Shown here: positions 1-61,719 of the stretch, one piece after another
How the letters are laid out: the number at the start of each line of letters is the position of its first letter
Position numbering within the stretch: the first letter of the stretch is position 1
The notes under the pieces: model-generated
Seen by the model: the letters and a program-made list of their open reading frames with translations, nothing else
What the model was told of the DNA's origin: nothing
Database searches by the model: none
Assembly: GCA_017591395.1 (NCBI GenBank)
Contig: WEDG01004211.1
Coordinates: forward strand, 62,001-126,000
Direction: 5' to 3'
Origin: Schistocephalus solidus
Lineage: Eukaryota > Platyhelminthes > Cestoda > Diphyllobothriidea > Diphyllobothriidae
Length of the DNA: 64,000 nt
Translations under genes and position numbers: made by a program

Positions 1-1574
1 CTTTCAGAAGACCATAATTACAAGTGCGCTACGATAATATGACAATTTACGAAGAGAGTAGACATTTCCCAAACGACGCAGGGAAAATACCGATAAAGAA
101 GAGGTGCATGGAAATATATCTAGACAGTAAAAAACTCCACCGTCACTGTTCCATGTCAGAATTCCGAAAAGCTGGACCAGCTGCATCATCAGTCTAAATC
201 ACAATGGCACGGAGCACAGAGCCCTCGCTGATCATCTGCTCCGCGTTAAAAGTACAGAAATGCAGCCTATGAAAGGATAACTGTGCGTCAGACGGTGGCC
301 CATTGCATCCATAAATGGGGAACGGTGAAACATTCTTGGATGAGAACCAAATGCTAAATTTGTGGGATACCGTGATTCATGAATAAGCGGCTGCGCAGTT
401 TGCAGTGGAAAAACCCTCAATTGTGACCTGGACACGGTTAGAACTTCGGTTGCACCTAAAAATGGTGCCATCACGCACTCGAGAATGATGTACGCCAGTT
501 AACAAGTTTTGCCCCTAGTCAAAGTGCAGGCGTCAGAGTACTGCCGAGGATGGGCAGATCGCCTACATCACAACCGTTCACGATAATTTACGCATATTTC
601 GAGCCATGCTGCGGCGCTCGTGACGGTAACAATGACGGCTTCTGCTATCAGAATCAGGAAGGTCTGTACGTTATTACCTCTAGTGCCACGAGACCTGTTG
701 CAGGACAGTTAAACATACTCATCGAAAAAATTCCTGCTACAGTTCACTGTCATATAAAACGTATGGACTGGAAGGGTGAATTGTTCGTTCAATCTGCACC
801 TCAAAATTGCTCTGGACAGGATGTCAACCGTCTACAAACTAAGCACTGCTACATTGACCACCCAAAATTAACTAGGTCCGGGGACTTCAACCAAGGACGA
901 TTACATAAAAACTTATGAAATAAGTTCCGTAACGTCTAGGTGTTGAGATGGATGATGTTAAGATGTATGGGAGGATGTATTTCTCACAAGACGTTTCGCG
1001 CGTGTATCTGGGCGTAGTATTGGAGGTGTACAAAAGTTGAAAATATGTGGTTTAAATTAGTCCATCTGGTCACCCCTTACAGGCTCATCACTCTCTCTCT
1101 TTTCACTGATCTTCCTTTCTTGCATAAGCGGTGTCTGATAGCTAAGTACGCACGATCCTGTTGACTCTCTGCTCTTTTTCAACTATGTTCCACTATGTTG
1201 GCCTCGCCAACATATCGAGATACTATTTTTTTGATACCACAACTCGCATGTACAAATAGGGAATTCAAAGGTGACTCACCTACATCTCCCTCAAATATAC
1301 TGATACTGAATACTGATACTGACCTCAGATTGACAGGCTTCGATTATTTTTCTCACCATCTTGTTTCCAGCGCGACCGAGTACTTGAGCGCTATCAATGG
1401 CGAGTTGAGCACTCTTATTGTTATGCGTTATGCAATTGCGCATCTTTTCGCTTTACGGCCACAATATGCTCTCGCATACGCATTCACAGGCGTTTGTCAG
1501 TCACGCCGCAGTAGATGGCTAGACAGTCAAGACAGCTGATACAGTAGATGACTGACGAATATTGCCGGCAAAGA
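1..1574. other. No recognisable gene or repeat
   Basis: Short reading frames occur on both strands, but none shows a domain, a repeat match within the window or good splice borders. I see nothing to annotate. Confidence 0.5.
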
Positions 1575-1825
1575 AAATGGAGACTGGAATGGACATTACC
1601 GGCTTATTGGCCGTTGTCAGCCTGTCATACCCAACCCCAGGTAGTGCACCACCCGAGGATCAAACCCATGACCCGTTGATCAGAAGTCCAACGCTCTAAC
1701 CATTGAGCCACGGGCTCGTTGTCTCGCCGGTTTAGATCGGGAATATTGACTTGCATTCGTTGATGAACGATAGATCACTCCTGACGTGTCCTCAGGTTGA
1801 AGTCGACCCTCAGGCTGTGTTAAAA
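1575..1825 (-). repeat. tRNA-derived SINE with decayed hammerhead tail (copy 1)
   Basis: On the minus strand a tRNA-like block lies at about 1718-1655. It has an A-box-like TGGCTCAATGGTTAGAG and a B-box-like GGGTTTGATCC. It is followed by a 3' module (about 1620-1585) shared with the copies at 16.4, 27.5 and 34.6 kb. Upstream, the head sequence around TATTCCCGATCTAAACC is shared with the copies at 16.2 and 39.6 kb. The hammerhead-like core is damaged here: CUGAUGA reads CTGACAA (1620-1614) and GAAA reads GTAA (1599-1596). Stem II, CGGC/GCCG, still pairs. The pol III boxes imply that the source element was transcribed by RNA polymerase III. This copy is probably dead. Confidence 0.75.
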
Positions 1826-6988: not shown

Positions 6989-6992
6989 AAAT

Positions 6993-7003
6993 TGGTGACC
7001 CCG
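6993..7003 (+). other. Primer binding site, tRNA-Trp type
   Basis: TGGTGACCCCG matches the first 11 bases of the tRNA-Trp primer site known from avian retroviruses and used by various Gypsy-type elements. It lies between the putative LTR end and the gag start at 7036, the expected position. The match stops after 11 bases. Confidence 0.6.
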
Positions 7004-7035
7004 CTTTTCTATCATTACGCACCATATCACTTACT

Positions 7036-7980
7036 ATGACGGACAATGAGACTAACGCAGACTCTCTTGACGTCCATAGCCTCTCTTTCAAATTGCCCCC
7101 ATTTACGCCGAGCAACCCTCGCGTATGGTTTAGGCAGATCGAGGCAGTTTTCTCGACGCGCCGTATCACCAGTGAACGCACGCGTTATTCATACGTAGTG
7201 CAATCACTTCCTTTCGATGTTACCGTTGACGTCGAGGACCTCCTTGATCCTATCCCTGCTGAGGAGCCATACACCCAGTTGAAGGATGCTGTAATTAATC
7301 GTGTGGCCAAGTCGGCCAACCGAATGCTGCGTGAGCTTTTCACGCAAGTCGAACTTGGCGATCAAACACCTTCCCAACTTATGCGACACATACGTTCTTT
7401 GCTTGCCGGTCGTCATATGGATGATGCAATTTTCCGACAGATCTGGCTGGATAAGCTTCCCCTGCCCATGCAGCAGGTATTGGCTATGCTCGACACGAGC
7501 ACCTCATTGGATAAACTAGCCAGTCATGCAGACAGAATCATGGAATGCTACCCAAGTGGTACTGCATGTTCTATTCTTCAACAGACATCGGTGTCCACTT
7601 CCAGATCTGATAATATTGACACTTCTGCTCATCAAGGCACTCCAAAGTCAGAACGTGACCCTCCCTATGTGACGTTATCATCGTGCTGTAGTGCCTATCA
7701 ACGGGCCGCACCATCATCTGACCTTTCGCAAGCATCAAATATCGTGCGTAGCAGTGATTATGAAGATTTAAAGGATACCGTACGCCTTTTATGCACGCAA
7801 GTCAGCAACATGTGTTCTATCATCAACAATCTCCAGTCGTCAAACATATCAACGTCGACGGTCCAAATCACGGGAACGGCAGACACAGACCGTGTGCTGG
7901 TACCATCGTACCTATGGCGTGAAAGCACGCAAGTGTATTCCGCCGTGCAAATTCCCACAGAAGCCGCAACAGTTAAATGA
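7036..7980 (+). pseudogene. Gag of a Gypsy-like LTR retrotransposon
   Basis: This frame encodes a retrotransposon Gag protein, which would package the element's RNA in the cytoplasm. I start at ATG 7036 (MTDNETNADS). The frame upstream is open to 6943 but translates the primer site and LTR. The protein opens with a capsid-like block (LPPFTPSNPRVWFRQIEAVF, then ELGDQTPSQLMRHIRSL and IWLDKLPLPMQQVLA) typical of flatworm Gypsy gags. It breaks off at a TGA at 7978-7980, but the same frame continues into protease, so the ancestor was one gag-pol frame. The zinc-knuckle-like stretch CWYHRTYGVKARKCIPPC is readable only in the +1 frame (7895-7948), so two compensating indels have destroyed it. Confidence 0.85.
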
Positions 7981-7983
7981 CAA

Positions 7984-8694
7984 CGCCAGCCAGTAATGGC
8001 GACGACTGCTGCTGGCCAACCGCGACCCAGTCGCCTCTTCTACATCACCGATAAGTCGAGTGGTCTCCGTTTTCTTGTAGATACCGGTGCTGAGGTTAGT
8101 GTTATCCCGCCTCCTAGGCGTCACCACCTCAAGCCTTCGTAGTTCTCATTGCAGGCTGCTAACAACACCGTCATCCACACATTCGGACAACAGTCCCTAA
8201 CTCTTGACCTTGGTCTAAGGCGATGTTTCCAATGGGTCTTTATCCTAGCCGACGTCCAGTCACCGATTATTGGAGCCGATTTCCTCGCACATTTCGGCCT
8301 TTCAGTTGATTTGAAGCATCGTCGACTCATTGATACTACAACCAGACTTTTCACCGTCGGTACGGTCACCTCTGAACCTTCGGTTGGCATACACTTGACT
8401 ATTCCAAGTTCGCCATTTGCTGACATTTTTAAGGACTATCCGTCCCTCACTAAACCTTGTCAGTTTACCGAAAAAGTTCAGCACACAGTTAAGCATCACA
8501 TAGTTACCACAGGACAACCCGTTCATGCCCACCCACGTAGGCTTCATCCAGAAAAGTTGCGGGTGGCTAGAAGTGAGTTCGAACACATGCTAAATTTGGG
8601 GATTTTTCGCCCTTCTTCCAACCCATGGGCCTCTCCTCTGCACATGGTCCCCAAGAAATCAGCCGATGATTGGAGGCCATGTGGGGATTATCGT
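7984..8694 (+). pseudogene. Protease and RT start of the Gypsy-like element
   Basis: This is the gag frame continued beyond a TGA. A retropepsin follows: FLVDTGAEVSVIPP, with the catalytic DTGAE at 8080-8094. A TAG at 8140-8142 interrupts it. Later residues include SPIIGADFLAHFGL, a conserved protease C-terminal block. RT begins near 8578 (FEHMLNLGIFRPSSNPWASP, then HMVPKK and DWRPCGDYR) and homology stops at GDYR, 8694. The frame then runs 17 unrelated codons to a stop. Most of RT, RNase H, integrase and the 3' LTR are absent. It would have been the polyprotein for maturation and reverse transcription, but it cannot act now. The family resembles flatworm Mag-type Gypsy elements. Confidence 0.85.
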
Positions 8695-8883
8695 GGCTGT
8701 GAATTTAAACTCGCGAACCGTTTAGTGGATGTGGGCAGCTACTAGTGATGATCCATCATCCTCTCTCACAGCCATCTTATATTTGCGGATGCGCGATCCG
8801 AGCATGCGTCCAGTCCGACCTGTTTAGTTACAAGAACTGTCTAGGCACGGGATGCGATACGCCACACCTGATTGCTCACGGGA

Positions 8884-13720: not shown

Positions 13721-14660
13721 GTCCTAAAGGAACTCAAGTCTGCAAAAAATTATACATAACGGAACCAGCGAGCGCGTTTTTATTGCAAGAAAGCAGCATT
13801 TAGTTTAAAACGGCTACTGGGTTGTTTCGACGAAGGCAAAACTTGCTCCGGAAACGGAACCAGCCACATTTCTGATTGTACAGTTTTCTGTTTGAGCAGA
13901 GACTTTACTTCAGTCCTGGATGTTCGTGAAGTATCTGAGACCTCTCGAAGTAGTTAGGTGAAACCCTTACCCATCGGTTCTCGCCGAGACCAAACGATAT
14001 TAGGCCACTTACTGAACGTCCAGGTTGTTGGGTAGGTTAACTTTGTGAAATTTGAATATCTTTGTTTTTGCACCAAAGTGGCTTACCAAGACTTCATCCG
14101 TCATCATATGTTCGTTCTAAGAATTTCACAATAATGACAGTCGTTTTGGTATAGTATACTTCCAGGGATTCATACTCAGCTGAATTTAGTCGCCTCCTTA
14201 TAGAGCAGGTGATACTGTAGGTACTGCTCAGACTGCCATTGTCGTATTTACCTTGAAACATGTGAGTTTTTGCTCATGAGAAGCTACTTCTTGCCAGTTC
14301 TTTCTTCGCATGCTACCTCCTCTAACGCTCACGCTCTTTTTACGGCCTGGCGGTTCTTCGCCTCCTCTGAGAAGGCCGAAGACAAACAAGGCGCACTGTT
14401 TTTGAGCTTCGTCAAAATAAAAACTGCTTTCCAGCCCCGAGGACTTGGTCCCTGTACTGATAGACCTTTTAAAACGATGGAGTGTGGAATTATTTACTAA
14501 GCTGCCCTCTGCTCAGGCACTACAAATCGCTTTTCAGCATGAAACCCTATGAGGAAGTCCTAAATAGCATCTAAGAAACGGCTTTGCTTGTTTTTTTTAT
14601 TCCAAAAAATCGCTACTGTGATAAATTAGAGGAACGGGGAGAAGGATTATTGACTAACAC
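13721..14660. other. No recognisable feature
   Basis: Nothing matching a domain or a repeat elsewhere in the window. Confidence 0.4.
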
Positions 14661-15035
14661 TAGGTAGATTGAGATGGCCATTTCTGGCTAAAAAGCCAGC
14701 TCTAGGTTTTGCAGAACCGCGGATGCGAACCCAGATATTTTTGTTATTAGACGCTTTATGAGTTCAACGCTCGACCGTTGGGTCACGGGCCCATTTTCCT
14801 GTCAACTGCGATGGAGAACTTCACTATGGTAGTGCGGATGTTCACCGATCAGAGTAAGGGTGTCTGGCTGGATACCGGCGGTGAATATTCCAGAAATTTC
14901 CATCCCAGTCTCCCTGGTTTTGATCAGTACCCCCTTCTTCTCATCTACTACTGGTTTCCGTGTGAGTACACGGACGGGCGCGATAGGATGAACACGTCCG
15001 TAACCTAATCGGTGAGCGCCCACGTTACGATAGCA
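14661..15035 (-). repeat. tRNA-derived SINE with damaged hammerhead tail (copy 2)
   Basis: On the minus strand a palindromic head (15030-14823, with arms around CGCTCACCGATTAGG and its counterpart) is followed by a tRNA-like block at 14795-14725 (CCCGTGACCCAACGGTCGAG, B box TGGGTTCGCATCC). The ribozyme-like tail lies at 14700-14670. Stem II TGGCT/AGCCA, GAAA and the palindrome ATGGCCAT are intact, but the CUGAUGA strand is lost. Order and orientation match the copies at 16.2 and 27.3 kb. Confidence 0.7.
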
Positions 15036-16180
15036 CAAACACTGTTACAGAGGCTGCACCCATTTAACCATTGAATCTTGCGTCCCTCTCAAGTGGAATA
15101 ACTTTAAATTGTAAAACTAACATGGTACGTGAGACCGGGAAGGGGTGAGTTTCGGAAACTCTACCGTTGTACCTCAACAGGGTTCGAAAGGCCATTCAAA
15201 AGCTGGGGGAAAACAAAGTGGCTTTCCTACTAGAGGCGTTATAAAATCGGAACGGCTACATTTTAATCCTCACGACGCTTGCTCAAAAGCCATGCAAGAA
15301 GTTTATGAAACATTGGTAATGTACTGGATAGAAAAGCGAATTTGGAATTCTTTAGCTTTGACTCAGCCACTTGTTGCTTAATTCAAGGATCAGCAGGTTA
15401 ATTATGGAAGCCTGATGTGACATTTTGCAGTCAAGGTGAACCGGTGCAAGCGAAACATCACATGAATTCCATGACACTTAATAATTTACAGATCACAATC
15501 TAGGAGAGAATCGGGGACGTAAAACCTGTTATCTCATAGTGCTGCATCTCTCTTTACATTCTGAGTGTAAGAAAAATATTTGTGACTGTGATTTTAAGCA
15601 ATCAAGTGTTAAGCATTGTGTCAATTGTATGGTCTTTGAATATATACATAGTGTAATTCATATCTAGTAAAAAATTTGCATTATCAAACAAATAGCATAA
15701 TAACTATATCACTCCTCGGACTATTCTTTGCAGAGTTACTTAAGCGCGAACTCAAAATATTGTTGCCCAAATCATATTTTAACTGCAACTATTTTGTGGA
15801 ATACGTCTTATCTCGGTCGATCTCAGTTCAGGACAAAGCAAAACCCCGAAAATTTGACAAGGAAATATGTTCAACTTCTGGACGTTTTGCTGAGTCAAGT
15901 ACCATGCGGTGGTGTGCGAAAAGGCATTTATGCGAACGAAAAGCCCCCTAAACCATGGCCAAACTTTTCAATCAGAAGTAACGTCCAGTGTTTTGCATAG
16001 CCAACAGAGCCTGAGTACCTTGATCTTCGAAATCACAAGAGGATTAACCACACCGTAAGAGGAAGTTCGTTCAACGGAGTGGGTACCCCTACAAATTCTC
16101 TCTAGGAAACACGTTGACGATCAAAACCAAAAAAAGAAAAGAAAGGGTTCTTCCCTGCTTACATTGCAGGAAGTCTAACC
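15036..16180. other. No gene recognised
   Basis: Two overlapping open frames at about 15676-16000 show no domain. Nothing else is supported. Confidence 0.4.
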
Positions 16181-16475
16181 ATGGTAGATAGGCACTCACC
16201 GATGGGTTACGTGAATCACTCGCCCCGTTGTGCCTTGGGACTCTTGCCATTGAGTCCCGTAACTAATCGGTGAGTGCCTATCCACCAATGTGCATATTCC
16301 CTATCTAAACTGCAAGACCATGAGTCCGTGGTGCAGTTAGTGTTGGACTTCTACCCAACAGGTAGCGGGTTCGAACAACGGGTGGCGCAATACCCGGGGT
16401 AAGGTATGGCTAGCTGATGGTGGCTAATGAGCTAGAAATGGACATTCCAGTCTCCCTGGTCTTTCTCCGTACTTT
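16181..16475 (+). repeat. tRNA-derived SINE with hammerhead-like tail (copy 3)
   Basis: The head is a near-palindrome: GGTAGATAGGCACTCACCGA (16183) is inverted as TCGGTGAGTGCCTATCCACC (ends 16286). Next comes ATATTCCCTATCTAAACTGC, then a tRNA-like block with A-box-like GTCCGTGGTGCAGTTAGTG (about 16325) and B-box-like GGGTTCGAAC (16367). The tail from 16414 is the hammerhead-like module. This is the most complete layout in the window: head, pol III promoter, ribozyme-like 3' module, then CAGTCTCCCTGGT. Confidence 0.8.
16414..16446 (+). ncRNA. Hammerhead-like motif of SINE copy 3
   Basis: It reads CTGATGG (A9 changed to G), TGGCT, AATG, AGCTA, GAAA, then TGGACATT and CCAGTC. Stem II pairs with one G-T wobble. 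The 5' flank GGCTAG can pair partly with CCAGTC as stem I. The A9 change would be expected to impair catalysis. Confidence 0.5.
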
Positions 16476-21077
<4,602 letters not shown>

Positions 21078-21189: not shown

Positions 21190-22440
21190 TGGACATCTAG
21201 CGGGGAGATAGTTCTAGTCTGAGCTTTTTTATTTCAGTCTCTTCACAAGTAAGGTAGCGTGCTAGAAATGGCAAAACGGAGCGCTGGTATGTCATTGTAC
21301 GGCAGGCTATATGGCGAAAGCCTCGGCGAATCGGACGGGAAGACTTCACAGCAATCAGCTCAGAGTGGAGGGGATGGGTTTCATCATCAAGGATTCGCCC
21401 AGCGAATTGTTTGACTGTCGTAAAGTGCCGTTTGGCTATCAAATCCACTCAAAACAGTATAAGAAACACCAGCAGCAGAAGAGAGCATTCGGAGAATACG
21501 TTTTAAAATCAAAAATTCTTTTAAGCAAGGCTGGAAAAAAATCACGGGAGAGCAATAAAGGATGAGGGAAAGAACACATGCCTCTATAAATCTCCAGATA
21601 AGAGCCTGAGGTGTGTGATAGGAACGTAAACGGCGAATATAATATAGTTTACGAATTTTTTAAAAAGAGCATCGATATGTTGGGAGAATGAAAGATTCGA
21701 TGTCAGAGAAACGCCAAGGTACCGAAAAGAGGATACCTCGTTGGGAAGGACGGCTGAGAATTGAGAACTAGGGGATGGTCGCAGGTTAAAAACACATTGG
21801 ACAGACTTCTCATGGTTCAGTTAAAGGCCACTATCTGATAACCAGTCTGCAACATGGTCAAGGCCATCCTTCAGACACTGGAGATGTGTCTGATTTTTAA
21901 GAGGATGACCAACAACCATGTCGTCGGCATATTTGATGTACAGACAGTCATTTGGTGACCTCCAATCATCAGTGCGAAGGGAGAAGATGTGAGGGGATAA
22001 GATGGCACCTTGAAGAACACCGCAGTTGTTTGGAAGGACAGTAGACTTCCGCTTGCCGGATTGTACGAATGGAGTGCGGGAAGTAAAATAATCATCAAGC
22101 CAAGAGACAACCCAGCCGGGAGAGCCAGACACGGATGTTTTATTAAGAAGGAGATGGCGCGGGATGGTGTTGAAGGCAGAGGAGTAGTCAAGAAATGCGC
22201 ATGCATATGCACGACAGCCCTTATCTAAATCTCGAAGAGCCGAATGTACCACAAAGGCAACGGCATCTAAGGTACTGCGTCCGGCCTTATAGGCAAATTG
22301 TAATGGGTCGGAGAAATTGGAGGAAAAAGGCTTAATTGTATCGAGAGCGACTCGTTCAGCAATCTTCAGTAAAGCGAAAGAGCAGGCTATTGGACATGTT
22401 CTATTGACGTAACCGAGTTGTAGGACGAGGATATACCCCA
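21190..22440 (-). pseudogene. CR1-like non-LTR reverse transcriptase (copy B)
   Basis: The best-preserved frame (about 22390-21824) encodes RT blocks in order: KIAERVALDTIKPF, DPLQFAYKAGRSTLDAVAF, CAFLDYSSAFNTIPRHLL, GVLQGAILSPHIFSL and the catalytic YADD (21931-21920) followed by MVVGHPLKNQTHL. The C-terminal part (about 21448-21197: HPLHSELIAVKSSRPIRRGF, RTMTYQRSVLPFLARYL) is in another frame. The protein would reverse-transcribe its own mRNA at the target site. The endonuclease and the N-terminal part of RT are missing, and frameshifts near 21800 and 21500 make it non-functional. Copy A at 11.7 kb is the same element in opposite orientation. Confidence 0.88.
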
Positions 22441-24009
22441 GTCTTGTAGACCTGGTCTAGAACTCACGAGTTTTCGATCGCCTGTGGAATGTTATCATAG
22501 CAAGTACATAGGATATGCCGAACCGACTGTCGACAAATGCTAAGCACCCGACTAGTTCTTCAGCTCAACCACACCTTGGTGGTGCTTTCACAATTACTTC
22601 ATCGAAGGTCACCAGCAGGGTAGTCTTACAAAGTACCCGAGGAGTTGGGTTTTGCCGTAAACAGAAATGAATTTACGTATAAAAGACGACCACACCCAGA
22701 GTCTTGCGGTGTGTGTATGACGACTGTCGATTGATAACTTTCCGCAGACATTCAATCTGCATCTCCTGTGCACTTATTCACCTCGTCCAAGGCTCACATC
22801 GGAAATAATTTCCTCTGCATATCTGATAAATATCAATCCAAATAAAGTACTGTCACCTCAGTTACTATTTAATATGCGGTCGTTGTCCAGAAATGAGAAC
22901 GCACAAAGGTTCCCTTTCCCGCACCAATTAAACAGCGTGGGATGGCGAGGTGAATGGGCTGTAAGTGACGTGCCTGCCATTCATAGGGCTACTGATAATA
23001 TCGAAATACAACAATTTTACGAAGTGCTCTGAAAACGCGATCATATAACTCGATCAAACAGGCAAAATGCCCAGTTATTCTCACGCTTTCATGCTCGACC
23101 GAATTCATGTTCATATTCGCAGTTTAAAACTATTATGATACGAAAATTTGGCAGAAGAGCCCGCACGAGAGGGGCCGGTCGGAAGATTGTTCCGATCTCT
23201 GAAACAACTCTTTCTGATAGCGTAAAGTTTCCTATCGCCTCCAAGCTCTCTTAAAAGATTATCCTGATTGTAGTCACTGTAAATTTTCAGATGCACAATA
23301 GGATAAAGGGCCCAATTTATCATAATATTCTCAGTAGCAAAGCACATCACCCGCGAACTTCGGATTAAGCAGCTCTTGAACATGGCAGGGGGACTAACAA
23401 AACACCAAAGTACTAAATTGCATGCAGAAGACTCCACAGCTATGTCAACAAACGATCATAAGCTTCCCACGCGGGGTTGCTGCCTCACCTGTCTACAGCG
23501 TCCGATGGCTGAGGAAGTCCGTGGCTGGGAGCTTCAACACCACCATCGACGCATCGTTCGAGAGCCGTATCTTCACGAGTGCTGTGGGCATTCAAAAGTA
23601 GGCGCTTAACAAGCAAATGCAACTGGAAAGAACATACGCGATTCTACCTAATGCAAGGGCGCTCATACCACTTTTTTCTTAACACGAAATTGTAAATATA
23701 GACAGCTGCTGAAAAGCTCTCTCCCAAACGTAGTACACGTAACCTTACGTTACATTCCAGGAAGGGTATACATTCCCGTATCCTAATCGTAACCGAAAAT
23801 CTTTCCCCTACTTCCTAATCCTTAATCCTAATCTCCTTGAAATTTAGCGCAAATCCACATGTTTTGCTAAGGGTTCTCGCACAGGATAGAAGGACTACTA
23901 TAACCTTTAATACCTAACATTTGTAGATAGAAAACCCCATAGTTTTGTCACCCAACCATCCACAGATCCCCACGCAGGGTTGCTGTCTCATTACTTTCTT
24001 AAGCGTCCA
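22441..24009. other. Mostly unannotated, one repeat-like block
   Basis: At 23455-23610 CACGCGGGGTTGCTGCCTCA...GCGTCCGATGGCTG...CATCGACGCATCGTTCGA resembles 23960-24230 in order and orientation. This suggests two diverged copies of one repeat within 0.8 kb. At 23750-23870 there is another TTAGCGC/CCTAATCC block. No gene seen. Confidence 0.4.
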
Positions 24010-27249: not shown

Positions 27250-27560
27250 CGGTCCTCCTCGGGACTGGTTCCTTCTGAGTGCGGCTGTTATGGCACTCAC
27301 CGATGTGAGGTCTGAGCCACCATCACCAAAACCTGGCAAATGTTAAGGGGTTTGAGTCGTATACAGCACGCGTATACAGGCTGGTTCAGTTGTTTAACCG
27401 GTAGGAAAACGAGCCTTTGGTTGGACTTCTGATCAAAAGGTCACCAGTTCATGCCTCGGGTGGGGCACCACCTGGAGTTGTGTATGCTTTGCTGATGACG
27501 GCTAATGAGCCGGAAATGATCATTCCAGTCTCTCTTGTATTTGTCGGCATTGGTAATCTG
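27250..27560 (+). repeat. tRNA-derived SINE with hammerhead-like tail (copy 4)
   Basis: Head remnants (TTATGGCACTCACCGATGTG at 27288) precede a degenerate tRNA-like block (27398-27465; TTGGACTTCTGATC, then CCAGTTCATGCCTCGGG for the B box). The linker CACCTGGAGTTGTGTATG matches the 1.6-kb copy. The ribozyme-like tail begins at 27492. The pol III boxes are decayed while the 3' module is the best kept of all plus-strand copies. Confidence 0.75.
27492..27530 (+). ncRNA. Hammerhead ribozyme candidate of SINE copy 4
   Basis: It reads CTGATGA (27492-27498), CGGCT, AATG, AGCCG, GAAA (27513-27516), TGATCATT, CCAGTC. Both core strands are exact, and stem II has five perfect pairs without an extra base. 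ATGATCAT (27516-27523) is self-complementary, so stem III could form between two transcripts. The likely cleavage site follows the ATT. Stem I, expected to pair CCAGTC with the flank 5' of CUGAUGA, is weakened here (TATGCTTTG). The 10.1/11.1 pair is C-G rather than the common G-C. Activity is unproven. Confidence 0.6.
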
Positions 27561-27759
27561 CCTCTGATACTACTAGCCGCTGCGCGGCTATAGGCAGGGT
27601 TGGAGAGTGAACCCCATGACTGAATAGGACAAGTGAGTTCCGTTAGCGATCAGTAAGTTTTCAACAAAGAAAGTTTAAGCTTCGTCAACCACTGGGCTCC
27701 TGACCAACTCCGACCGAATCGACTTGGCCTTGCCATCAGAGCAAAGTGTGTGTGTGTGC

Positions 27760-29184: not shown

Positions 29185-30690
29185 CGAAGGCCCCAAGCTA
29201 AGCGGCCGCCAGATAAGTTAAATACTCTTTTGTTAAATTTGCCTGCTCACTGTTTTGATTTCAGCAACCAACTAACCCAGAAACTGGATAAATTGCATGC
29301 TCCAGATAATAACGCCACCGTGGAAACACGATGGTGCCAACTGCAAAATGTCAGCCAGTCCACCGCCCTCGAAGTCCTCGGACGCGCACGCCGTAAAAAC
29401 CAGGACAGGTTTGATGACAATGACGCCGACATCAGCAACTTACTCGCGGAGAAGAACGGACTACACAAAGCCTACAGAGACCTTCGGACCGACGCCACCA
29501 AAGCAGCCTTTCTTCGGATGCCGCCGTCTTGTACGGCAACGGTTGCGGAAGATGCAGGACGCCTGGATGATCCGAAAGGCTGAGGACATCCAGGGGTATG
29601 CCATTAAGGCCATCTACGGCCCCTGCATCAATGGGAACGCATCGCTGCTCAGCACTGACGGTACAACACTGCTGACAGAGAAATCTCAAATTCTGAAGCG
29701 CTGGGCCGAGCACTTCAGAAATGTCCTTAATTGCTAATCAGCCATCTCCGATGCTGCCATTGACCGACTCCCTCAAGTGGACACGAACAATGACCTGGAT
29801 CTGCCGCCTTCCCTACCAGAAACCATCCGGGCCGTGCAGCAGATATCCCGCGGTAAAGCACCGGGATCCGACGCAATCCCACCGGAAGTCTACAAGCGCG
29901 AAGGGCCCCGACTGATGGCAGAACTCCCAACACTCTTCCAGGAGAATTGGCGCCAGGGACAAGTTCCTCAGGATTTCAAAAACGCGACCATTGTCCATCT
30001 CTACAAGCGGAAGGGGATCCGGCAGCTCTGTGAGAAGCACAGAGGCATCTCGTTGCTCAATATCGGCGGGAATATTTTCACTCATTTCCTTCTCAATCGT
30101 CTGAACGGTCATCTAGGGCAGGGAATGCTCCCGAAAAGCCAATGTGGCTTCCGCCGACACCACGGAACAACCGAAATGATCTTTGCCGCCCGCCAGCTAC
30201 AAGAGAAGTGCCAGGAGATGCGAACTCACCTATATGCTACCTTCGTGGATCTGACCAAAGCCTTTGACACGGTGAATCGCGACGGACTGTGGAAATTCGT
30301 GCGGAAATTCGGCTGTCCTGAGCGGTACTTGCACATGGTGCCTCATTTTCATGATGATGGCGCGCTTCAATCACAACGGGACGGTTTCCAAGGCAGTCGC
30401 ATTGACCGACGGAGTGAAACAGTCTCATGTTCTGTCTCATGTTCTCTGCTATGCTGATGAACGCCTATCGTCATGGGTAGCCTGAGATCCGCATTGCCTA
30501 TAGAACTGATGGACAACTTCTCAACAGTCGGCGTATTCAGGCTTCAACTCATGTGTGTACGACTACAGTCCATGCCTTGCTCTTCGCGGACGACTGCGCC
30601 ACGGTGACGACACGGTGACGAAGGAGGACATGCAAAGGAGTATGGACCTCTTCGCCGCAGGCTGCACCTATTTTGGATTAACAATCAGTA
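29185..30690 (+). pseudogene. Reverse transcriptase of the RTE-like element
   Basis: The linker after the endonuclease (RRPQAKRPPDKLNTLLLNLP, then ALEVLGRARRKNQDRFDDND) leads after a frame change near 29518 into RRLVRQRLRKMQDAWMIRKA. The RT blocks follow: SRGKAPGSDAIPPEVYK, QDFKNATIVHLYKRKG, HRGISLLNIGGNIFTHFLLN, CGFRRHHGTTEMIFAARQLQ and ATFVDLTKAFDTVNRDGLWK, which carries the first catalytic Asp. Near 30350-30440 the frame breaks again, and the segment after GVKQ is replaced by a short repeated TCTCATGTTCTG. The catalytic FADD is at 30593-30604. A TAA at 29735-29737 also interrupts it. RTE-type enzymes reverse-transcribe at the nicked target. This copy is dead. Confidence 0.9.
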
Positions 30691-32238
30691 CAGCCAAAAC
30701 GGTTGTCATGTCCCAGCCACCCCCCAGCGCTTAATACAATGCTCCCCGAATCAATGTCAACGGTGCTCAACTCAAAAACGTGGAAAACCTTCGCTTATCT
30801 AGGAAGCACGCTGTCATGCAACACGATAAACGATGACGAGGTTGGCCAACGGATATCCAAAGCTAGTCAGGCCTTCGGCCGGCTGCAGGCCTCCATGTGG
30901 AATCGCCACGGTATTCACCTGAACACCAAACTGAAGATGTGCAAGACCGTCGTATTGACGACACTCCTTTACGGAGCGGAGAACTGGACGGTCTACTCGA
31001 ACCAAGCCAGGAAGCTGAATCACTTCCATCTCAGCTGCTTCTGCAGAATACTGAAGTTGAGATGTCAAGACAGGATCCCGGACACGGAAGTCCTGGAGCG
31101 GACTGGAATCCTCAGCATCCACGCCATGCTGAGGCAAGTGCAACTGCGATGGAGTGGCCACCTGGTAAGAATGGACGACGAGCGACTACCCAAACGACTT
31201 TTCTACGGAGATGTCGCTACGGGTTCTGGCCGGCAGGGAGGTCAAAAACGACGCTACAAGGACACTTTGAAGAAATCGCTGTAGCAACTGCAAATCAACC
31301 CAGCGACCTGGGTGGACCTTGCATAGGATAGACCGGCTTGGAGAAGATCCGTCAAAACTGGTTCAGCAATCTATGAGGCCAACCGGTTCGCCGCCGCCAA
31401 GGCAAAAAGAGCGGCATGAAAGTCACCAGCGCCCCGGACCAACACCGCCACAACCCAGGCCCTGCCAACATGCCCGCGCTGTCAACGCATCTTCCGCGCT
31501 CGAATCGGCCTGGTTGGACATCTTCGAACGCAATGCACCAACAATCCGACAATTCCAACTTCAGACTCCCACACCATCACTCCTGGCATCAGCTCCATTA
31601 CGCCCACCATCATAAAGACCACATCCCAAAACGCCTCGCCTCTTACCCCCACCACCGCAACCACCACCGTCCCCGTCACCACCACTGTCACCAGCGATGG
31701 GGACTCTCTCCTAAACTGTCCTCAATGCGACCGAACATTCTCCTAACACATCGGCCTGGTCGGTCACTTGCGAATACATCGTACAGAGACCGGTGAGCCA
31801 GTGTCTGGAGCACCATCACACAGCAGAGATCGCCACCTCCACTGCCCTCACTGTCCTCGCGCATTCACTCATCGCATGGGCCTATTCGCTCACATGTGCA
31901 ACCATGACAGCGGAATTAACAATGATGCCGATAACACCGATACACCATGCACGCCCTCCACTCCTACCATTCTATCTGCCGCTGCCACCCCCACTGCCAT
32001 GAATGACATGCCCCCAGCCTCTACCGGTTTCTCCTACCCACACTGTGCCCGCAACTTCAACTCATGCATCGGCCTGGTCGGTCACCTGCGAATCCATCGC
32101 ACGGAGGCTGGTGAACCAGTGCCTGGGGCTCCGACATACAGTCGCCGCGCCCGCCTCCACTGCTCTCACTGCTGACGCACATTTACACACCGCGTGGGCC
32201 TATTAGGACACATACACCTCCACGACAACCTGCTGTAA
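30691..32238 (+). pseudogene. RT C-terminal domain and C2H2 zinc-finger tail of the RTE-like element
   Basis: After VVMSQPPPSA the frame shifts near 30790 and stays the same to 32238, broken only by stops (for example 31282, 31744 and 32173). The thumb region reads MCKTVVLTTLLYGAENWTVY, FCRILKLRCQDRIPDTEVLE and LRWSGHLVRMDDERLPKRLF. Five finger units follow. The first is C2HC-like (TCPRCQRIFRARIGLVGHLR, cysteines from 31471, ending QC at 31536). The second (NCPQCDRTFS, stop, HIGLVGHLRIH) is at 31717. The third is LHCPHCPRAFTHRMGLFAH. The fourth is FSYPHCARNFNSCIGLVGH, where the first Cys has become Tyr. The fifth (LHCSHC, stop, RTFTHRVGLLGH) is near the end. Fingers may bind the element's RNA or target DNA. 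Confidence 0.88.
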
Positions 32239-32741: not shown

Positions 32742-34579
32742 CACACTCTCTCTCAGGCATGACTGCACGCAGTCAACACTAGTTCTTTACACCTCAGCGG
32801 CCATGACTTTCTGGGACAGCAACATAGATTTAGATAACAAAGACCTGATGATTGTAGTGTTTTGATTACTCTGAGTACACACACTGCTTAGACGATACAT
32901 ATGCGTCATTGCCCTGTTTCCCTATAGTCTACTTCACGTGAAAGTGGTACATCCACTCCGTGGGGCGATCTGTGGACATTTTAACTGTCAGTAGCAGTGC
33001 TGATGCTGCTGATGATGCAATTATACGGACGAATCTCAAGTTCCTTCATCTCTTCATCTTGGACGAGGGGTCAAAGCATTTGGAGGGTCATTATCAGGAC
33101 ACCGTCATGGAGCATGAATTCCCTCATATTAGCTAAGTAATCAGGCATGCCTAATATTGAGGGGTTCGTAGATAGCGACGCCCCAGCTGGAATCTGCGCA
33201 ATATTATTCACGCTGCTTGCATGGCTTTGAACGGCTTCGGTTGGCACTCCTTGCCTCGGCTACATCTTCTTACTCCAGAGACTCATCTCGTCGTGGCCAG
33301 CGGCGCTTGATCAGCCAATACGAAACCTTCCCCATGTAAATAGGCAGTTAGCACTATCCTCTGGTTTGATTGGACTGTTCAACTTGCCATCCATCTAAGC
33401 CAGACTGCGTCAAAAGCCAGTTCTCCGAAATACCCTTGGACATGTGAGGAGTCCTTCTGATGTTCTAATTGATGCTTAGGAAACCCGCATCATTTGTGGT
33501 TTCAGCACTGCACATATTGATTGTATTAGTAATCAGACCTTCGCTTAATTCCCTCTCCTGGCCGGTAGATTTTAACTGGCATTGAAGTTGTTTGGCGAAC
33601 AAAAGCTTTGCCCGTAGGAAGTGGCTGGATGCATACAAAACAGAATGCAGCCGATTTTACGGCAACCACCGAGCATAATTGCACATAAGCCTTTTTTCAC
33701 GAGAGCAGTGTCCTTTTGGCCTGCGAGTTGTTTGTTACCACAGTCAAAAATAGAACTCAAAGCCAACAAAGCATTCTGGCTGCTCAGTCGTCAAATGGTA
33801 GGTAAGCACTCATCAAGACCACAGCGTCAGTTTTTAAGATGTCAAAATGAGGGACGACCGTTAGTCCTTTGTGTTCTTAGTTACGTCCCGTTAGAATTAA
33901 AGCAGGCCAAGACAGGCTGGGTGATTCTCTCAGACTGCAGCTCAAGGGAGTGAGCTAAAAGCCTAGGCGTTGCTGATTTTTGAAGTCAATCCAGACTGAC
34001 CGGGCCGGGTATGTTCGGTCCGGCAGTAAATTTTAGTGGGCGTGGAGGCGGGTGGGAAGACAACTGGAGGCTTGCGTTCATGCGGATGGAGACGGTGGTG
34101 AGGGCTCATGCGCCAGCCTCCTGCAGCATCCGCGAGCAAGAAGAAAGGTGAGGTACCATGTATCATTTCGTGTGCACGCATGCGTGTACGGCGAGCGCAC
34201 TATAAAGGGGCTAATTTTGGCTGAAACGCACCATCCGCGCAACTTACCGAGCTCTCCGGGGATCTTCGAGACTGCGATCTGCGCACTCGCATCAAGACCT
34301 GATGATTTCTTGGCGATCGTGGGTATCTGTGGTCATAACTTCAGGACAGATGCCCAAAGCACCTGCCAGTGAAAGTCTTCGGGCTATTCCCGGTCCCTTG
34401 AAGACACTGATAGGGATTTCTGCATGTGAGAGGTCCCCCCCCCTCCCCCACCGCCCCCAATCATGTCAGGTCGAGTTACTGATGCGTTACCACTCCACTC
34501 CTAGGGTGCCGGCCCCGAACGTCCTTTCAAGAACTGAGTGCTTGTCATTATCCAGGCAGATGAATATTACCGTCGAAGA
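32742..34579. other. No gene recognised
   Basis: CTCTCAGGCATGACTGCACG near 32750 and ACACACTGCTTAGACG near 32876 recall 3160-3345. Nothing else supported. Confidence 0.4.
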
Positions 34580-34642
34580 CAAGGGAGACTGAATGGCCAT
34601 TTCTGACTTATTAGTCATCATCAGGCAACCGGTGGGCGAAAA
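34580..34642 (-). repeat. Fragment of the tRNA-derived SINE: hammerhead tail only (copy 5)
   Basis: On the minus strand ACCGGTTGCCTGATGATGAC through GAAATGGCCATTCAGTCTCC corresponds to the 3' end of the SINE. The tRNA-like part is not visible upstream, so this is a 5'-truncated copy, as reverse transcription would leave. Confidence 0.7.
34594..34624 (-). ncRNA. Hammerhead ribozyme candidate of SINE copy 5
   Basis: Minus strand: CTGATGA (34624-34618), TGACT, AATA, AGTCA, GAAA (34603-34600), TGGCCATT. Both core strands are exact. Compared with 27.5 kb (CGGCT/AGCCG), stem II differs at two positions, and both partners have changed so pairing is kept. ATGGCCAT is an eight-base palindrome, which would let two transcripts form stem III together. 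Confidence 0.6.
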
Positions 34643-39518: not shown

Positions 39519-39790
39519 AGAGGTGTGGAAGGGTGCTCACCTATAATTCCTTTCTGTCTAGAACACACTAGCCACCGACTGGCTCCTGGTGGGTCTGGAG
39601 TGTGAGCCCCAAGGCACAACGGGACGAGTATGCGTCCCGTAAACGATTGGTGAGCACCTATCCACACAGGTTGCTATTCCCGATCGAAACCGACAGGACA
39701 ACGATCTCGTGGCGCAGTGGTATCGCAGCAGGCTACGTTGATAGGGGAGGTCCTGGCCGCTCCCAACTTCTGACCTGGTTCCGTAGAAGG
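39519..39790 (+). repeat. tRNA-derived SINE, head and tRNA-like part (copy 6)
   Basis: The arms AGGGTGCTCACCTAT and TTGGTGAGCACCTATCCAC reproduce the head palindrome of the 16.2-kb copy. GCTATTCCCGATCGAAACCG, then ATCTCGTGGCGCAGTGGTAT (A box) follow in the same order. No B box or hammerhead tail is found, so the copy is 3'-damaged or replaced. Confidence 0.65.
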
Positions 39791-39839: not shown

Positions 39840-40140
39840 CGATTGCAGACTTGGTTGGAGGAAGTTGGCTGCCGAACGAAGGCACGTCCAACCGCTGCGT
39901 CTGCGACGTTCCCAAGCGTGTGAGACCGCGCGGTCGTCACAGGGCATCCAGCGTGATCAGATGTAAGTCAGCCTTGAAAATGATTGGCCGGTGTGGACAG
40001 TCAGGATTGTCAAGGGCCAGACAGCCATTGGTGCGCACGTGCATGTAGACGCGAGAGGTTCAGCGTTCAACATGCGCACAGTCACTACATCGGGTAGAGC
40101 GTTGAAATTAAAAGGTCGTGGTTTCGAGCCACAGGTATAC
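39840..40140 (+). repeat. Dispersed repeat, GATTGGCCGG family (copy 4)
   Basis: ATGATTGGCCGGTGTGGACA, CCATTGGTGCGCACGTGCAT and GCGAGAGGTTCAGCGTTC closely follow copy 1 (3.6 kb). It is followed by a tRNA-like GGGTAGAGCGTTG...GTGGTTTCGAGCCACAG at 40093-40135, suggesting a tRNA-related end. Confidence 0.7.
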
Positions 40141-58787: not shown

Positions 58788-61719
58788 CTGCAGAGAATAG
58801 TTATCAAAAATTTTGACACGGATAGGGCTATGTCCTAAAGCAAAGGCATGATAAATGGATGGTCCGCGGACGAGGCAACTACCAGAGATGCATTAAGGGT
58901 TGAAAACTCGGAGATATACAGCACATAGTTATGAAATTTTGGAGCAACTAGTCAAAGAAAAGGAGGTTTCATAGGGAGCGAGATGGTTGTGAAACAAGAT
59001 GACGAAAGGCTAACAAGTATCACTTGGGGAGTTCTAAAATTCAGAGGCTGAAAGGTGAGACGGAATGCAATTAAAAAAGACGGAGAAAAGCCAACACAAT
59101 CGACGGTAAAAACAGCGAGACGGGATATATGCAAGAGAAGAACGAAAAATGGTAGAGAAAGAACCAGACGGACTAGGAAAGTCGGCTTTACCACCACCAG
59201 TTCCGGTGTGGTTTTGTTCATGCACCTTTGTACTACAGACGATTATATATTGAAATATATTAATAACATACTCTTTTCGGGTCCGAAATTTCAGAAAAGT
59301 ATAACAAAACGACTGGGGATTGGAATTATCAAGAATTGTTCATTCGCTATCGTAGGCCAGTCACTACTTGACCTAGGATAGGAAACACCTGTGGCTTGTA
59401 CTAGGAATAACTACATTGTCATGTGAATGATATACGAAATGGAAAGCGGCAGGTGACTGTGGATCGATTGAGCCAAATGCCTGATCATAAACTGACATGG
59501 GCTCAACCATAAGACCCTCCGGAGGCTATGATCAGGGCATGGCTGGCTTATAACAGCAAATAACCCAGATAGTTATTTTAGCTACCCTTCTTTATTAGTA
59601 TTTATCGGGAGCAAGTGGCCACTGAGTCAGACGTTTCATCATGCGAACTACGGGCCAAGCCTTGTCGGTTGGGTTCCAACGACTAGACACAAGAATAGAA
59701 CCCCTTGGGTAACAGGGGCGCGGTGCTGCGTAAAATTAAAGGAAGGGTAAATATTCCCACGACATAGTCCTAACCTTAAGACTAACTCTATTATCCCCGG
59801 AAATTAGCTCAAAAACCCCGAAACAGGGGAAGGGGTTCCCCATTCTGTGTCTTGCCATTTCAAGTTCTTAGAATCCGGTTTCATTTCCGACAACCCCCTC
59901 CTCCCCCCCGAAACAGGGGGGGAGGGGTCCAGAGTGTAGTGACTGACAAAGGTAAATAGCCCGTGTACGCGTGCCATACACGACCTAGTCGCTACAGCTC
60001 GAATCTTGCATGAGTGGGGGTGCCATAGAGGCAATAGTAATAAGGAATAATCACATGACTCTCAGTCCTGAGAGGGAACGTTGGTTGACACTCTTTCAAA
60101 CCACGACTCTTAGCACGTTGGTAAGGGTTTAAGCACCTCAGATTTATAATAGTGCGGAAGGCTTAACAGAGCCTTCGTGATTTGCATCCTCTGTGGTCGA
60201 ACGAGTATACACATTAACAAAAAGTCCAAGCGGAAACGTTCGCACAGGCCGAAAAACATTTTTCCATGTATTTTTCGTGGCATCTAAAATCACGCCCAAA
60301 AGCCATCTCCGAAAAGGCTAAGAGCCTAACCCATTTCAGGGAACCAGAAAGCCCTAAAATCATCCACAAATAAGGGTGGATGCGGACGCACGGAAGTCAG
60401 CTGTAGTGAGTGCAACATAACTGTATGCAACTGAGAAATTGAACAGAAATTTGAATAGCCAAACACCCAACCTATTAACCATTTACATTCGGCACGATCT
60501 CAAAGAACACATTTCGTGACACGGTGTCCAAGTAAGTAAGCTCAGATGGATGGATAAGTTCTGCATATTTAGGCATACAGACGGAAGGCTTATTTTTTTC
60601 AGTTAAGGCATATTTAGAAAGTTCCCTCAAGGAAAGAAAGGACAGGCACACGCAACAGAAGAAAACACTGACAATATCAAACCCTTGTGATTGGAAGTTT
60701 AACTTGCAATTAATGCTACGCGAGAAATCACAAAGGACAAAAATTGGCTTTGGAATTTTCAACGGGCGGCCCTAACCTACATTATTAGGGTGGACACGGA
60801 ACCACTGGCTCACCAAAACAACTATCCCGAACAAGTAATTTTAACTGAAACAGCAGCTACTAGAAAAGAGACTTCAAAAATTCACCCCTGAATGCTTTGT
60901 TACTTATAGGTCCGTCATGCAGCTACAGGTTGGTAGCAAACGTCAAATGAGTGAACATGGAGTATAAATATTTGCAGTCACTCTAATAAGGTTGGCATGT
61001 CGAGATTGTACAAACCTAAATAGTACCGTACACCGTTTTGAGGTCTTCAATGAGACACTCGAGCACAATAAGTGCGAACAACCATATTATGGTAGCTGAT
61101 AGCTTACGATAAGTCGGTTTGCTCTTAGTTCTCATTATTACGGGTTCACTCTCAAGTGAACCTTTAAGATAATGGGTCAGTACTGCAGAGGTGAAATTGT
61201 GCTTAAATTATTCTCGAGACGGATGAGAAAACGACTGCCATCCGGCGCAAAGACATATGAGGACACAATAAGTCACCACCTCTGACGCCTGGAATATTGG
61301 TGAGATGGAGAGGCTTAGTAACGAACGGCACCGGGCGAACGAAAGAACAGCGAAATACATAAGTGGTCGATAGACGCAGTCGAGATCTAATCACTATTGG
61401 CTGAGAATGCCTATTGGAGGATTCAGGCACATCCGCTAACCAATAAGAACAACGCGCTTTAATATAGGCTTCGTTAACAGTGTGTTTCCTCCAATGCACG
61501 GGCGACGAATGAGTAATGCTTGAATTGTGCGCTCTTTCTGGTTAACGGACGCGACCCTCCAGGCTAATGTACCGATGTCAGCAAGGCCATTAAAGTAGAG
61601 TTTGTATCCAAAATAGAGTAAATAGATAGGGCTACAATAAACGCAATTTTTCAGAAAATACGTGGAGGCTCAGAAGAGAATGAATCAAATCCAAGGGGTT
61701 ATTGTGGTCAGAGCCAGGT
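58788..61719. other. No gene recognised
   Basis: A minus frame at 60475-60700 (ELSKYALTEKNKPSVCMPKY) follows a good pyrimidine tract (CCTTTCTTTCCTTGAG) but has a weak donor. It could be an upstream exon. At 59730-59810 a CCTAACC/GGAAATTAGCTC block resembles 41.6 kb. At 59815-59935 CCCCGAAACAGGGG occurs twice in a GC-rich patch. Confidence 0.35.

What the first reader, a model, noticed from the sequence alone, without database searches (positions are those of the whole stretch)
27250..27560. A tRNA-derived SINE whose 3' end is a hammerhead ribozyme fold
Copies at 1.6, 14.7, 16.3, 27.4 and 34.6 kb share the same tail: CUGAUGA, a 5-bp stem II, GAAA, a palindrome, then CCAGTC. The first four also share a head and tRNA-like pol III boxes. 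CUGAUGA and GAAA are exact in two of five copies. The flank 5' of CUGAUGA in three copies gives a rough consensus (xCTxG) able to pair with CCAGTC as stem I. Schistosome Sm-alpha repeats are known to combine pol III signals with a hammerhead. This would be a tapeworm counterpart with unrelated stem sequences. Self-cleavage could trim tandem transcripts into unit-length RNA.
Basis: partly seen in the sequence, partly recalled or inferred. Interest (0 to 1): 0.88.

Follow-up and report, generated by a model that had tools for sequence, protein, structure and literature searches.

The report
Flatworm hammerhead repeat with tRNA-like head
Thousands of short repeats in this probable flatworm genome combine a tRNA-like start with a self-cutting RNA fold, and their ends suggest they are copied by a Penelope-type retrotransposon rather than as ordinary SINEs.

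Summary
The copies are real: the core pattern has 8577 exact matches in the 604-Mb source genome against 6 for the reversed pattern. The repeat is a 308-nt unit, often tandem, with a tRNA-like head starting 97 nt before a type I hammerhead. The hammerhead is not the 3' end; copies mostly run on 18-48 or 124-153 nt past the cleavage site. Pairing within the family is no better than chance, but a second family in the same genome (233-bp unit) has different stems that still pair (94% of cells, 7 of 13 pairs changed on both sides). Both families lack a standard pair at the base of helix II, and Rfam hammerhead models do not match, so cleavage may be slow or dimeric. Neighbouring copies are head-to-head far more often than tail-to-tail (29:2; 16:2 under the strictest count). 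Penelope-like elements here share this bias (8:0, by eye) and end mostly 33-83 nt past their own hammerhead-like motif. Best reading: a tRNA-headed non-LTR retrozyme, kin in kind to schistosome Sm-alpha, copied by Penelope-like reverse transcriptase. Cleavage, circles and promoter activity are untested.

The parts
27395..27637 (+). Copy at issue: part of the tRNA-like head, hammerhead, and 3' part of the unit; similarity runs on to about 27655 (long-type 3' end)
   Evidence: nhmmer with the unit model, model 53-308, E 6.4e-57; 3' end at +130
27486..27530 (+). Hammerhead segment: stem I strand GCTTTG (degenerate), CTGATGA at 27492-27498, stem II CGGCT/AGCCG, GAA, stem III ATGATCAT, T, then CCAGTC
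   Evidence: sequence, alignment A1
27524..27525 (+). Predicted cleavage between U17 (27524) and C1.1 (27525)
   Evidence: inferred from the hammerhead fold; no cleavage tested
1533..1769 (-). Copy with head and degenerate hammerhead (CTGACAA, GTAA)
   Evidence: model 21-253, E 8.7e-62
14629..14853 (-). Copy with head; one arm of a head-to-head pair; CTGATGA lost
   Evidence: model 8-244, E 8.4e-27; sequence
14862..14970 (+). Other arm of that head-to-head pair
   Evidence: model 156-263, E 4.6e-11; junction list
16149..16213 (-). Fragment, other arm of a possible head-to-head pair (41-bp gap)
   Evidence: model 2-64, E 1.2e-5
16255..16478 (+). Copy with head and near-intact hammerhead (CTGATGG)
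   Evidence: model 1-230, E 8.7e-56
34548..34630 (-). Hammerhead-only copy; CTGATGA and GAAA exact, one C of CCAGTC lost
   Evidence: model 160-243, E 3.2e-18
39543..39721 (+). Fragment across a unit boundary, no hammerhead (model 221-305 then 1-87)
   Evidence: E 5.1e-14 and 2.5e-18
40088..40136 (+). Small piece of the tRNA-like head
   Evidence: model 81-135, E 7.4e-6
59292..59402 (-). Decayed hammerhead-region copy
   Evidence: model 120-234, E 8.8e-7
59532..59603 (+). Decayed hammerhead-region copy
   Evidence: model 151-226, E 7.2e-7

Best explanation
This is a family of non-LTR retrozymes: a 308-nt unit with a tRNA-like head that starts 97 nt upstream of a type I hammerhead core. I infer that pol III or read-through transcription of tandem units gives multimers, since the unit consensus has no run of four T. 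The hammerhead, probably working as a pair through its 8-nt palindromic helix III, cuts them to unit-length and perhaps circular RNA. New copies are probably made by the reverse transcriptase of an abundant Penelope-like element (PLE). It would start inside the RNA, 18-48 or about 124-153 nt downstream of the cleavage site, can run on for several units, and often uses both target strands, giving head-to-head pairs. Shown here: anatomy, copy number, tandem and head-to-head layout, two 3' end classes, compensatory stem changes against a second family, and a similar PLE layout. Inferred: transcription, cleavage, circularisation, and the PLE as donor.
For: 8577 exact core matches against 6 for the reversed control. 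308-bp tandem units, including an array filling a 5-kb stretch (17 hits in L030). Consensus with 13 of 13 helix pairs; 0 of 200000 letter shuffles reach 13 (the motif was chosen because it looked like a hammerhead, so this overstates). Second family with a 233-bp unit (210 matches, 40 of 1713 candidates scored). Across 15 chosen rows, 14 distinct, 94% of 182 cells pair (0 of 500 shuffles reach it), covariation 0.527 against at most 0.095 for slid pairings. Neighbours within 60 bp: 29 head-to-head, 2 tail-to-tail, 54 same strand; 16, 2 and 54 if hits overlapping by more than 10 bp are left out, and 16, 2 and 32 without L029 and L030 as well. Outer ends of 54 non-edge clusters: 79 are 3', 29 are 5'. 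3' ends: 35 of 81 at +18 to +48, 25 of 81 at +124 to +153, none at +49 to +80. 33 of 80 ribozyme-spanning hits start at least 20 nt upstream of the head. PLE in the same genome: 150 scored of 17909 candidates; pairs within 6 kb among the printed rows, counted by eye: 8 head-to-head, 0 tail-to-tail, 7 same strand. PLE tandem unit 2663 bp with a hammerhead-like motif; 10 of 16 PLE outer ends at +33 to +83 from its site, 4 at +45 and 4 at +77. Precedent, from passages: head-to-head as the most frequent inverted layout and an optional 31-bp tail (PMC3846280); internal initiation, cutting and extension of both strands (PMC11167929).
Against: No RNA or cleavage data. Rfam gives no hammerhead match in 201 bases holding a good copy even at E 10. 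Position 10.1/11.1 is C.A in 51 of 74 copies and a standard pair in 15 of 74. Pairing within the family is no better than independence (804 of 967 cells, 799 expected). In one search the count of pairs changed on both sides (7) is reached by 247 of 500 shuffles and the count of pair types (12) by 496 of 500; the signal is one change between two families, not many events. CTGATGA is exact in only 2 of 5 family 2 rows. In isolation a long hairpin that excludes the hammerhead is more stable (-22.7 against -14.4 kcal/mol under a hammerhead constraint, whose output lacked stem III); by eye the whole-unit fold keeps stem II but not the full hammerhead. Target duplications are weak: 8 of 53 clusters share 8 bp or more against a shuffled mean of 1.5 (largest 5), but by eye 4 of the 8 are element sequence or simple repeat. 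The two 3' classes of the repeat lie about 100 nt apart, those of the PLE 32. 6 of 16 PLE ends do not lie at +33 to +83. I made no systematic search for sequence shared by repeat and PLE.
Confidence: 0.7

Rival explanations
1. A conventional tRNA-derived SINE moved by a LINE, which happens to carry a hammerhead, as the SINE-like Sm-alpha is described.
For: tRNA-like head with an exact A box on the consensus; dispersed copies; the schistosome Sm-alpha precedent (PMC2770079 passages).
Against: Head-to-head excess with outer ends mostly 3'; two 3' end classes and, by eye, no consistent poly-A or simple-repeat tail; only 5 of 114 hits begin within 6 nt of the head start. No LINE tail was compared.
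Confidence: 0.13
2. Satellite DNA with a dying hammerhead, spread mainly by DNA recombination and conversion; the ribozyme has no present role.
For: Long arrays (L030; family 2 on C1337, 28 printed rows); core intact in only 36 of 74 spanning copies although many stretches were fetched for an intact core; base of helix II mismatched.
Against: Thousands of intact cores over many contigs, preferred 3' ends and head-to-head insertions, and paired stems of different sequence in two families.
Confidence: 0.1
3. The functional fold is the long hairpin across the ribozyme region, and the hammerhead is inactive or only a competing state.
For: Lower free energy in isolation; 1017 of 1203 cells paired for the hairpin against 804 of 967 for the hammerhead.
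Against: Neither fold exceeds independence inside the family. The hammerhead pairs across two families; the hairpin was not tested that way. The consensus keeps the hammerhead core positions (definition recalled).
Confidence: 0.12

Closest known systems
Schistosoma Sm-alpha / Sj-alpha SINE-like elements with type I hammerhead
   Same: Flatworm element with a tRNA-like part and a hammerhead, in thousands of copies (passages of PMC2770079, and PMC8490949).
   Different: The Sm-alpha-like elements are reported as tRNA-Gln-TTG-derived (PMC2770079); here the head looks tRNA-Arg(UCU)-like by a recalled anticodon loop, not established. Helix II base is mismatched here. No Sm-alpha sequence was available to align.
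Metazoan non-LTR retrozymes
   Same: Tandem units of 150-450 bp with a type I hammerhead (PMC7229834 passages); the axolotl HHR_Amex2 also has a mismatch (U.U) at the base of stem II.
   Different: A tRNA-like head, G+C 57% (retrozymes are described as under 45-50%), and head-to-head copies; neither 'head-to-head' nor 'inverted' occurs in the main text of PMC7229834.
Penelope-like elements with minimal hammerheads
   Same: Tandem and head-to-head copies, optional 3' tail, ends shortly downstream of a hammerhead (passages; this genome).
   Different: The repeat is 308 nt, has no reverse transcriptase, and has its own stems.

Membership tests
Type I hammerhead ribozyme | Core CUGANGA ... GAAA with A15.1-U16.1 and H17 not G (definition recalled) | tested here: met
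   Consensus, and 36 of 74 copies have CTGATGA, GAAA and T at 16.1; one of those 36 has G at 17
Type I hammerhead ribozyme | Three helices meeting at the core | tested here: met
   13 of 13 consensus pairs; 94% of cells across two families, rows chosen partly for pairing
Type I hammerhead ribozyme | Standard pair at 10.1-11.1, usually G-C (recalled) | tested here: not met
   Standard pair in 15 of 74 copies; consensus C.A; U.U in 3 of 5 family 2 rows and U.C in 2 of 5
Type I hammerhead ribozyme | Match to Rfam hammerhead models | tested here: not met
   None in the window at E 1, in 9 loci at E 10, or in 201 bases at E 10
Type I hammerhead ribozyme | Self-cleavage | not testable with these tools
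   needs in vitro transcription
Metazoan non-LTR retrozyme | Tandem units of 150-450 bp, one hammerhead each | tested here: met
   308-nt units; family 2, 233 bp
Metazoan non-LTR retrozyme | Low G+C (under 50%) | tested here: not met
   Unit consensus 57%
Metazoan non-LTR retrozyme | Small linear and circular RNAs | not testable with these tools
   no RNA data
tRNA-derived SINE | Pol III A and B boxes | tested here: inconclusive
   A box exact on the consensus; B box 3 mismatches in one consensus and 2 in another by eye; ARAGORN finds no tRNA in the unit and the three Rfam tRNA matches in units score 20.9-22.1, under the cut-off of 29
tRNA-derived SINE | 5' end at the tRNA start | tested here: not met
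   5 of 114 hits within 6 nt (L029 and L030 dropped)
tRNA-derived SINE | 3' tail shared with a LINE | not tested
   no LINE tails compared
Sm-alpha family proper | Sequence homology to Sm-alpha | not tested
   no Schistosoma genome was searched
PLE-type integration | Head-to-head inverted and tandem copies | tested here: met
   29 head-to-head, 2 tail-to-tail, 54 same strand; 16, 2, 54 under the strictest overlap limit
PLE-type integration | Short target duplications (8-10 bp in the PMC3846280 passages; absent in some copies there) | tested here: inconclusive
   8 of 53 raw, 4 of 53 convincing by eye

The most novel reading that the evidence does not exclude
A pol III-driven, hammerhead-processed circular RNA is copied by a Penelope-like reverse transcriptase that starts a few tens of bases downstream of the ribozyme and rolls round the circle. 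That would explain tandem arrays, preferred 3' ends and head-to-head pairs at once, and a mismatch at the base of helix II plus a palindromic helix III would restrict cutting to dimers.
Probability: 0.35. Interest if true: 0.8.

Novelty: new variant of a known kind. Interest (0 to 1): 0.62.

Why it matters
Which machinery moves animal retrozymes is open; a review proposes Penelope-like elements because the two co-occur (PMC7761336 passages). Here the insertion layout itself is alike: a head-to-head bias in both, and ends a similar distance past each element's own hammerhead, in one genome. That makes the hypothesis testable with one RNA and one PLE protein. It would also link a tRNA-like promoter, a ribozyme and a third class of retroelement in one 308-nt unit.

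Tried and rejected
Rfam hammerhead models: no match. ARAGORN: no tRNA in the unit (it found one gene elsewhere, in L011). Covariation inside the family: none, so the fold rests on the consensus and on the second family. Target duplications: weak; by eye I set aside 4 of the 8. A simple SINE with a fixed 5' start: not supported. A LINE origin was not tested. The tRNA isoacceptor was judged by recall only. A Pfam scan of two PLE reverse-transcriptase pieces gave no supporting family, so I named them PLE from recalled motifs; the GIY-YIG hits are. Host: COX1 reads open with code 9; 4 of 8 AAA codons fall on asparagines of the best-matching chain, 8ugh_4A, read by eye from the alignment; 'tapeworm' rests on recalled COX1 motifs. 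Papers: (hammerhead ribozyme + cestode) listed 3 papers, none on a cestode retrozyme by title and abstract; (two of hammerhead, retrozyme, tapeworm) showed 25 of 43, none on a tapeworm retrozyme by title and abstract; others (hammerhead + Spirometra; Penelope, SINE, tRNA-derived, tapeworm) found no paper. Searches were further listings. Only an open-licence library was searched; PMC5785218, PMC4209133 and PMC108972 are not held.

Full report
What is there. The window lies in an unnamed 603,688,359-base assembly of 8019 contigs. The pattern CTGATGA-N10-20-GAAA-N5-15-CCAGTC has 4229 forward and 4348 reverse matches; the pattern read backwards has 6. A unit model built from array copies finds 143 hits at E 0.001 in 257,962 bases (25 stretches, the window included). 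Apart from the window, the stretches were fetched because they hold an exact match, so densities are not a random sample.

Anatomy. Successive hammerheads in arrays are commonly 301-311 bp apart. On the unit model the tRNA-like head starts at 69, CTGATGA at 166, and the predicted cleavage follows 198. The A box TGGCGCAGTGG is exact on the consensus; the B box is imperfect. The doubled unit has no run of four T, so pol III could read through units (inference, and such absence is not rare by chance). The consensus hammerhead is GGCTGG-CTGATGA-C-GGCT-AATA-AGCC-A-GAA-ATGGCCAT-T-CCAGTC.

Is the fold real? Inside the family the pairs do not exceed independence: copies decay after insertion. In 74 spanning copies (L029 and L030 rows dropped as near-duplicates; 96 with them) the core is intact in 36, and many stretches were fetched for an intact core. 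Position 10.1-11.1 is C.A in 51, T-A in 10, C-G in 3. A mechanical hammerhead scan of the loci then held and the window (L001 and L003-L008 left out) printed 20 rows: 19 of this family and one different hammerhead in L011. The latter belongs to a second family, a 233-bp tandem unit (28 printed rows on contig C1337). Its five rows at hand have stem I GRCGTA/TACGTC (TTTGTC once), stem II mostly CGGT/ACCG with variants, helix III ACAGYTGT in 3 of 5, a GTC triplet at the site in 4 of 5, and CTGATGA exact in 2 of 5. Across 10 rows of family 1 (the window's and 9 of the 19 scan rows) and these 5, 94.0% of 182 cells pair (15 rows, 14 distinct), and sliding the partners drops pairing to 21-42%. Seven of 13 pairs change on both sides, but 247 of 500 shuffles reach seven; the shuffles never reach the percentage paired, the cells changed on both sides or the covariation score. 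The signal is in effect one divergence between two families. The family 1 scan rows and L041 came from a scan that asks for pairing; the other four family 2 rows came by DNA similarity. Helix lengths, an AAYA-type loop and a G/A alternation at one stem I position are alike in both, by eye. Both lack a standard pair at 10.1-11.1. An axolotl retrozyme with U.U there still cleaves, better as a dimer (PMC7229834 passages). So I take the motif as a hammerhead of the weak, dimer-type sort, not as proved active. Energy folding argues the other way: a competing hairpin wins in isolation.

How copies end. Of 58 clusters, 4 touch a stretch edge; the other 54 have 108 outer ends, 79 of them 3' and 29 5'. 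Neighbouring hits within 60 bp are 54 same strand, 29 head-to-head and 2 tail-to-tail. Three of the 29 are one duplicated locus (L029), and some involve overlapping hits: without overlaps above 10 bp the counts are 54, 16 and 2; without L029 and L030 as well, 32, 16 and 2. Re-aligned 3' ends number 81, a few from edge clusters: 35 at +18 to +48 from the cleavage site, 25 at +124 to +153, 1 at +171, 7 at +81 to +105, and 13 negative, of which 5 (-168 to -155) would read +140 to +153 if wrapped by one unit. Among 25 head-to-head clusters with both ends placed, 10 are one short and one long, 5 short-short, 2 long-long and 8 other; by rough reckoning that mix is not beyond chance. Outer 5' ends are scattered, and 33 of 80 ribozyme-spanning hits start at least 20 nt upstream of the head. 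So many templates crossed the unit boundary: multimers or circles, not transcripts starting at the tRNA-like head.

The Penelope-like element. GIY-YIG hits led to PLE fragments. A PLE endonuclease query has 17,909 candidates, 150 scored. Among the printed rows I counted by eye pairs on one contig within 6 kb: 8 head-to-head, 0 tail-to-tail, 7 same strand; of the 7, four are 2663-2665 bp apart, two 5328 and one 2788. The tandem unit is 2663 bp, with a hammerhead-like motif CTGACGA...GAAAATTC at 728-762 of L040, where a long open frame begins (757); its stem II is poor by simple end pairing. At the 16 outer ends of those 8 pairs, PLE similarity stops at +45 (4), +77 (4), +83, +33, -74, -76, -110 (2), -179, and once runs on to the end of the fetched stretch. 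PLE literature describes head-to-head as the most frequent inverted layout and an optional 31-bp tail (PMC3846280 passages), and internal initiation with cutting and extension of both strands and no need for ribozyme cleavage in vitro (PMC11167929 passages). The repeat's layout matches, except that its two end classes lie about 100 nt apart. In family 2, by eye, 10 head-to-head and 2 tail-to-tail neighbours within 70 bp occur in the printed rows (pieces under 60 nt left out, and more matches exist than are printed). Repeat hits also lie in 6 of 16 PLE flanks of about 1 kb, and downstream of PLE sequence in L035 and L026; I did not measure a background for this.

Host. Mitochondrial COX1 reads open with code 9, and 4 of 8 AAA codons fall on asparagines of the best-matching solved chain, as expected for code 9. 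A cestode is likely by recall only.

Known or new. The kind is known: Sm-alpha in schistosomes and non-LTR retrozymes, with platyhelminths named in passing (PMC7229834). PLEs as movers have been proposed from co-occurrence (PMC7761336). What is added is a tRNA-headed member in another flatworm-type genome, a second family with different paired stems, a shared mismatch, and insertion-layout evidence for PLE copying. Papers were seen as search listings, abstracts or passages, none in full.

Noticed in passing
L011:1500-1861 (-); C1337:23032-29486: Second hammerhead repeat family, 233-bp unit in arrays, no tRNA-like head noticed; in the four loci read, copies end beside (TA)n.
   Followed up: partly
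L040 (C6387:2200-7700): Very abundant Penelope-like element, 2663-bp tandem unit with RT and GIY-YIG and a hammerhead-like motif; dozens of printed endonuclease matches are 95-97% identical to the query.
   Followed up: partly
L014:4569-4857 (-): Short tandem unit of about 143-145 bp of the same family that lacks the tRNA-like head.
   Followed up: no
L030 (C87:49000-54000): Array filling the 5-kb stretch with 307-309 bp spacing; by eye similar variants recur every few units and stem II is broken in many units.
   Followed up: no
L029 (C65:75400-78800): A head-to-head pair of the repeat amplified as a 908-910 bp tandem.
   Followed up: no
L011:2651-2734 (-): A good tRNA gene match (56.6 bits) with an insert in the anticodon region, perhaps tRNA-Tyr with an intron (recalled).
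   Followed up: no
window 6937-8745, 21821-22456, 29738-31284: Open frames that look like retrotransposon polyproteins or reverse transcriptases, judged by eye.
   Followed up: no
G000 contigs C5997, C7083, C6182, C5619: COX1-like matches with several stop codons, perhaps nuclear copies of mitochondrial DNA or assembly errors.
   Followed up: no
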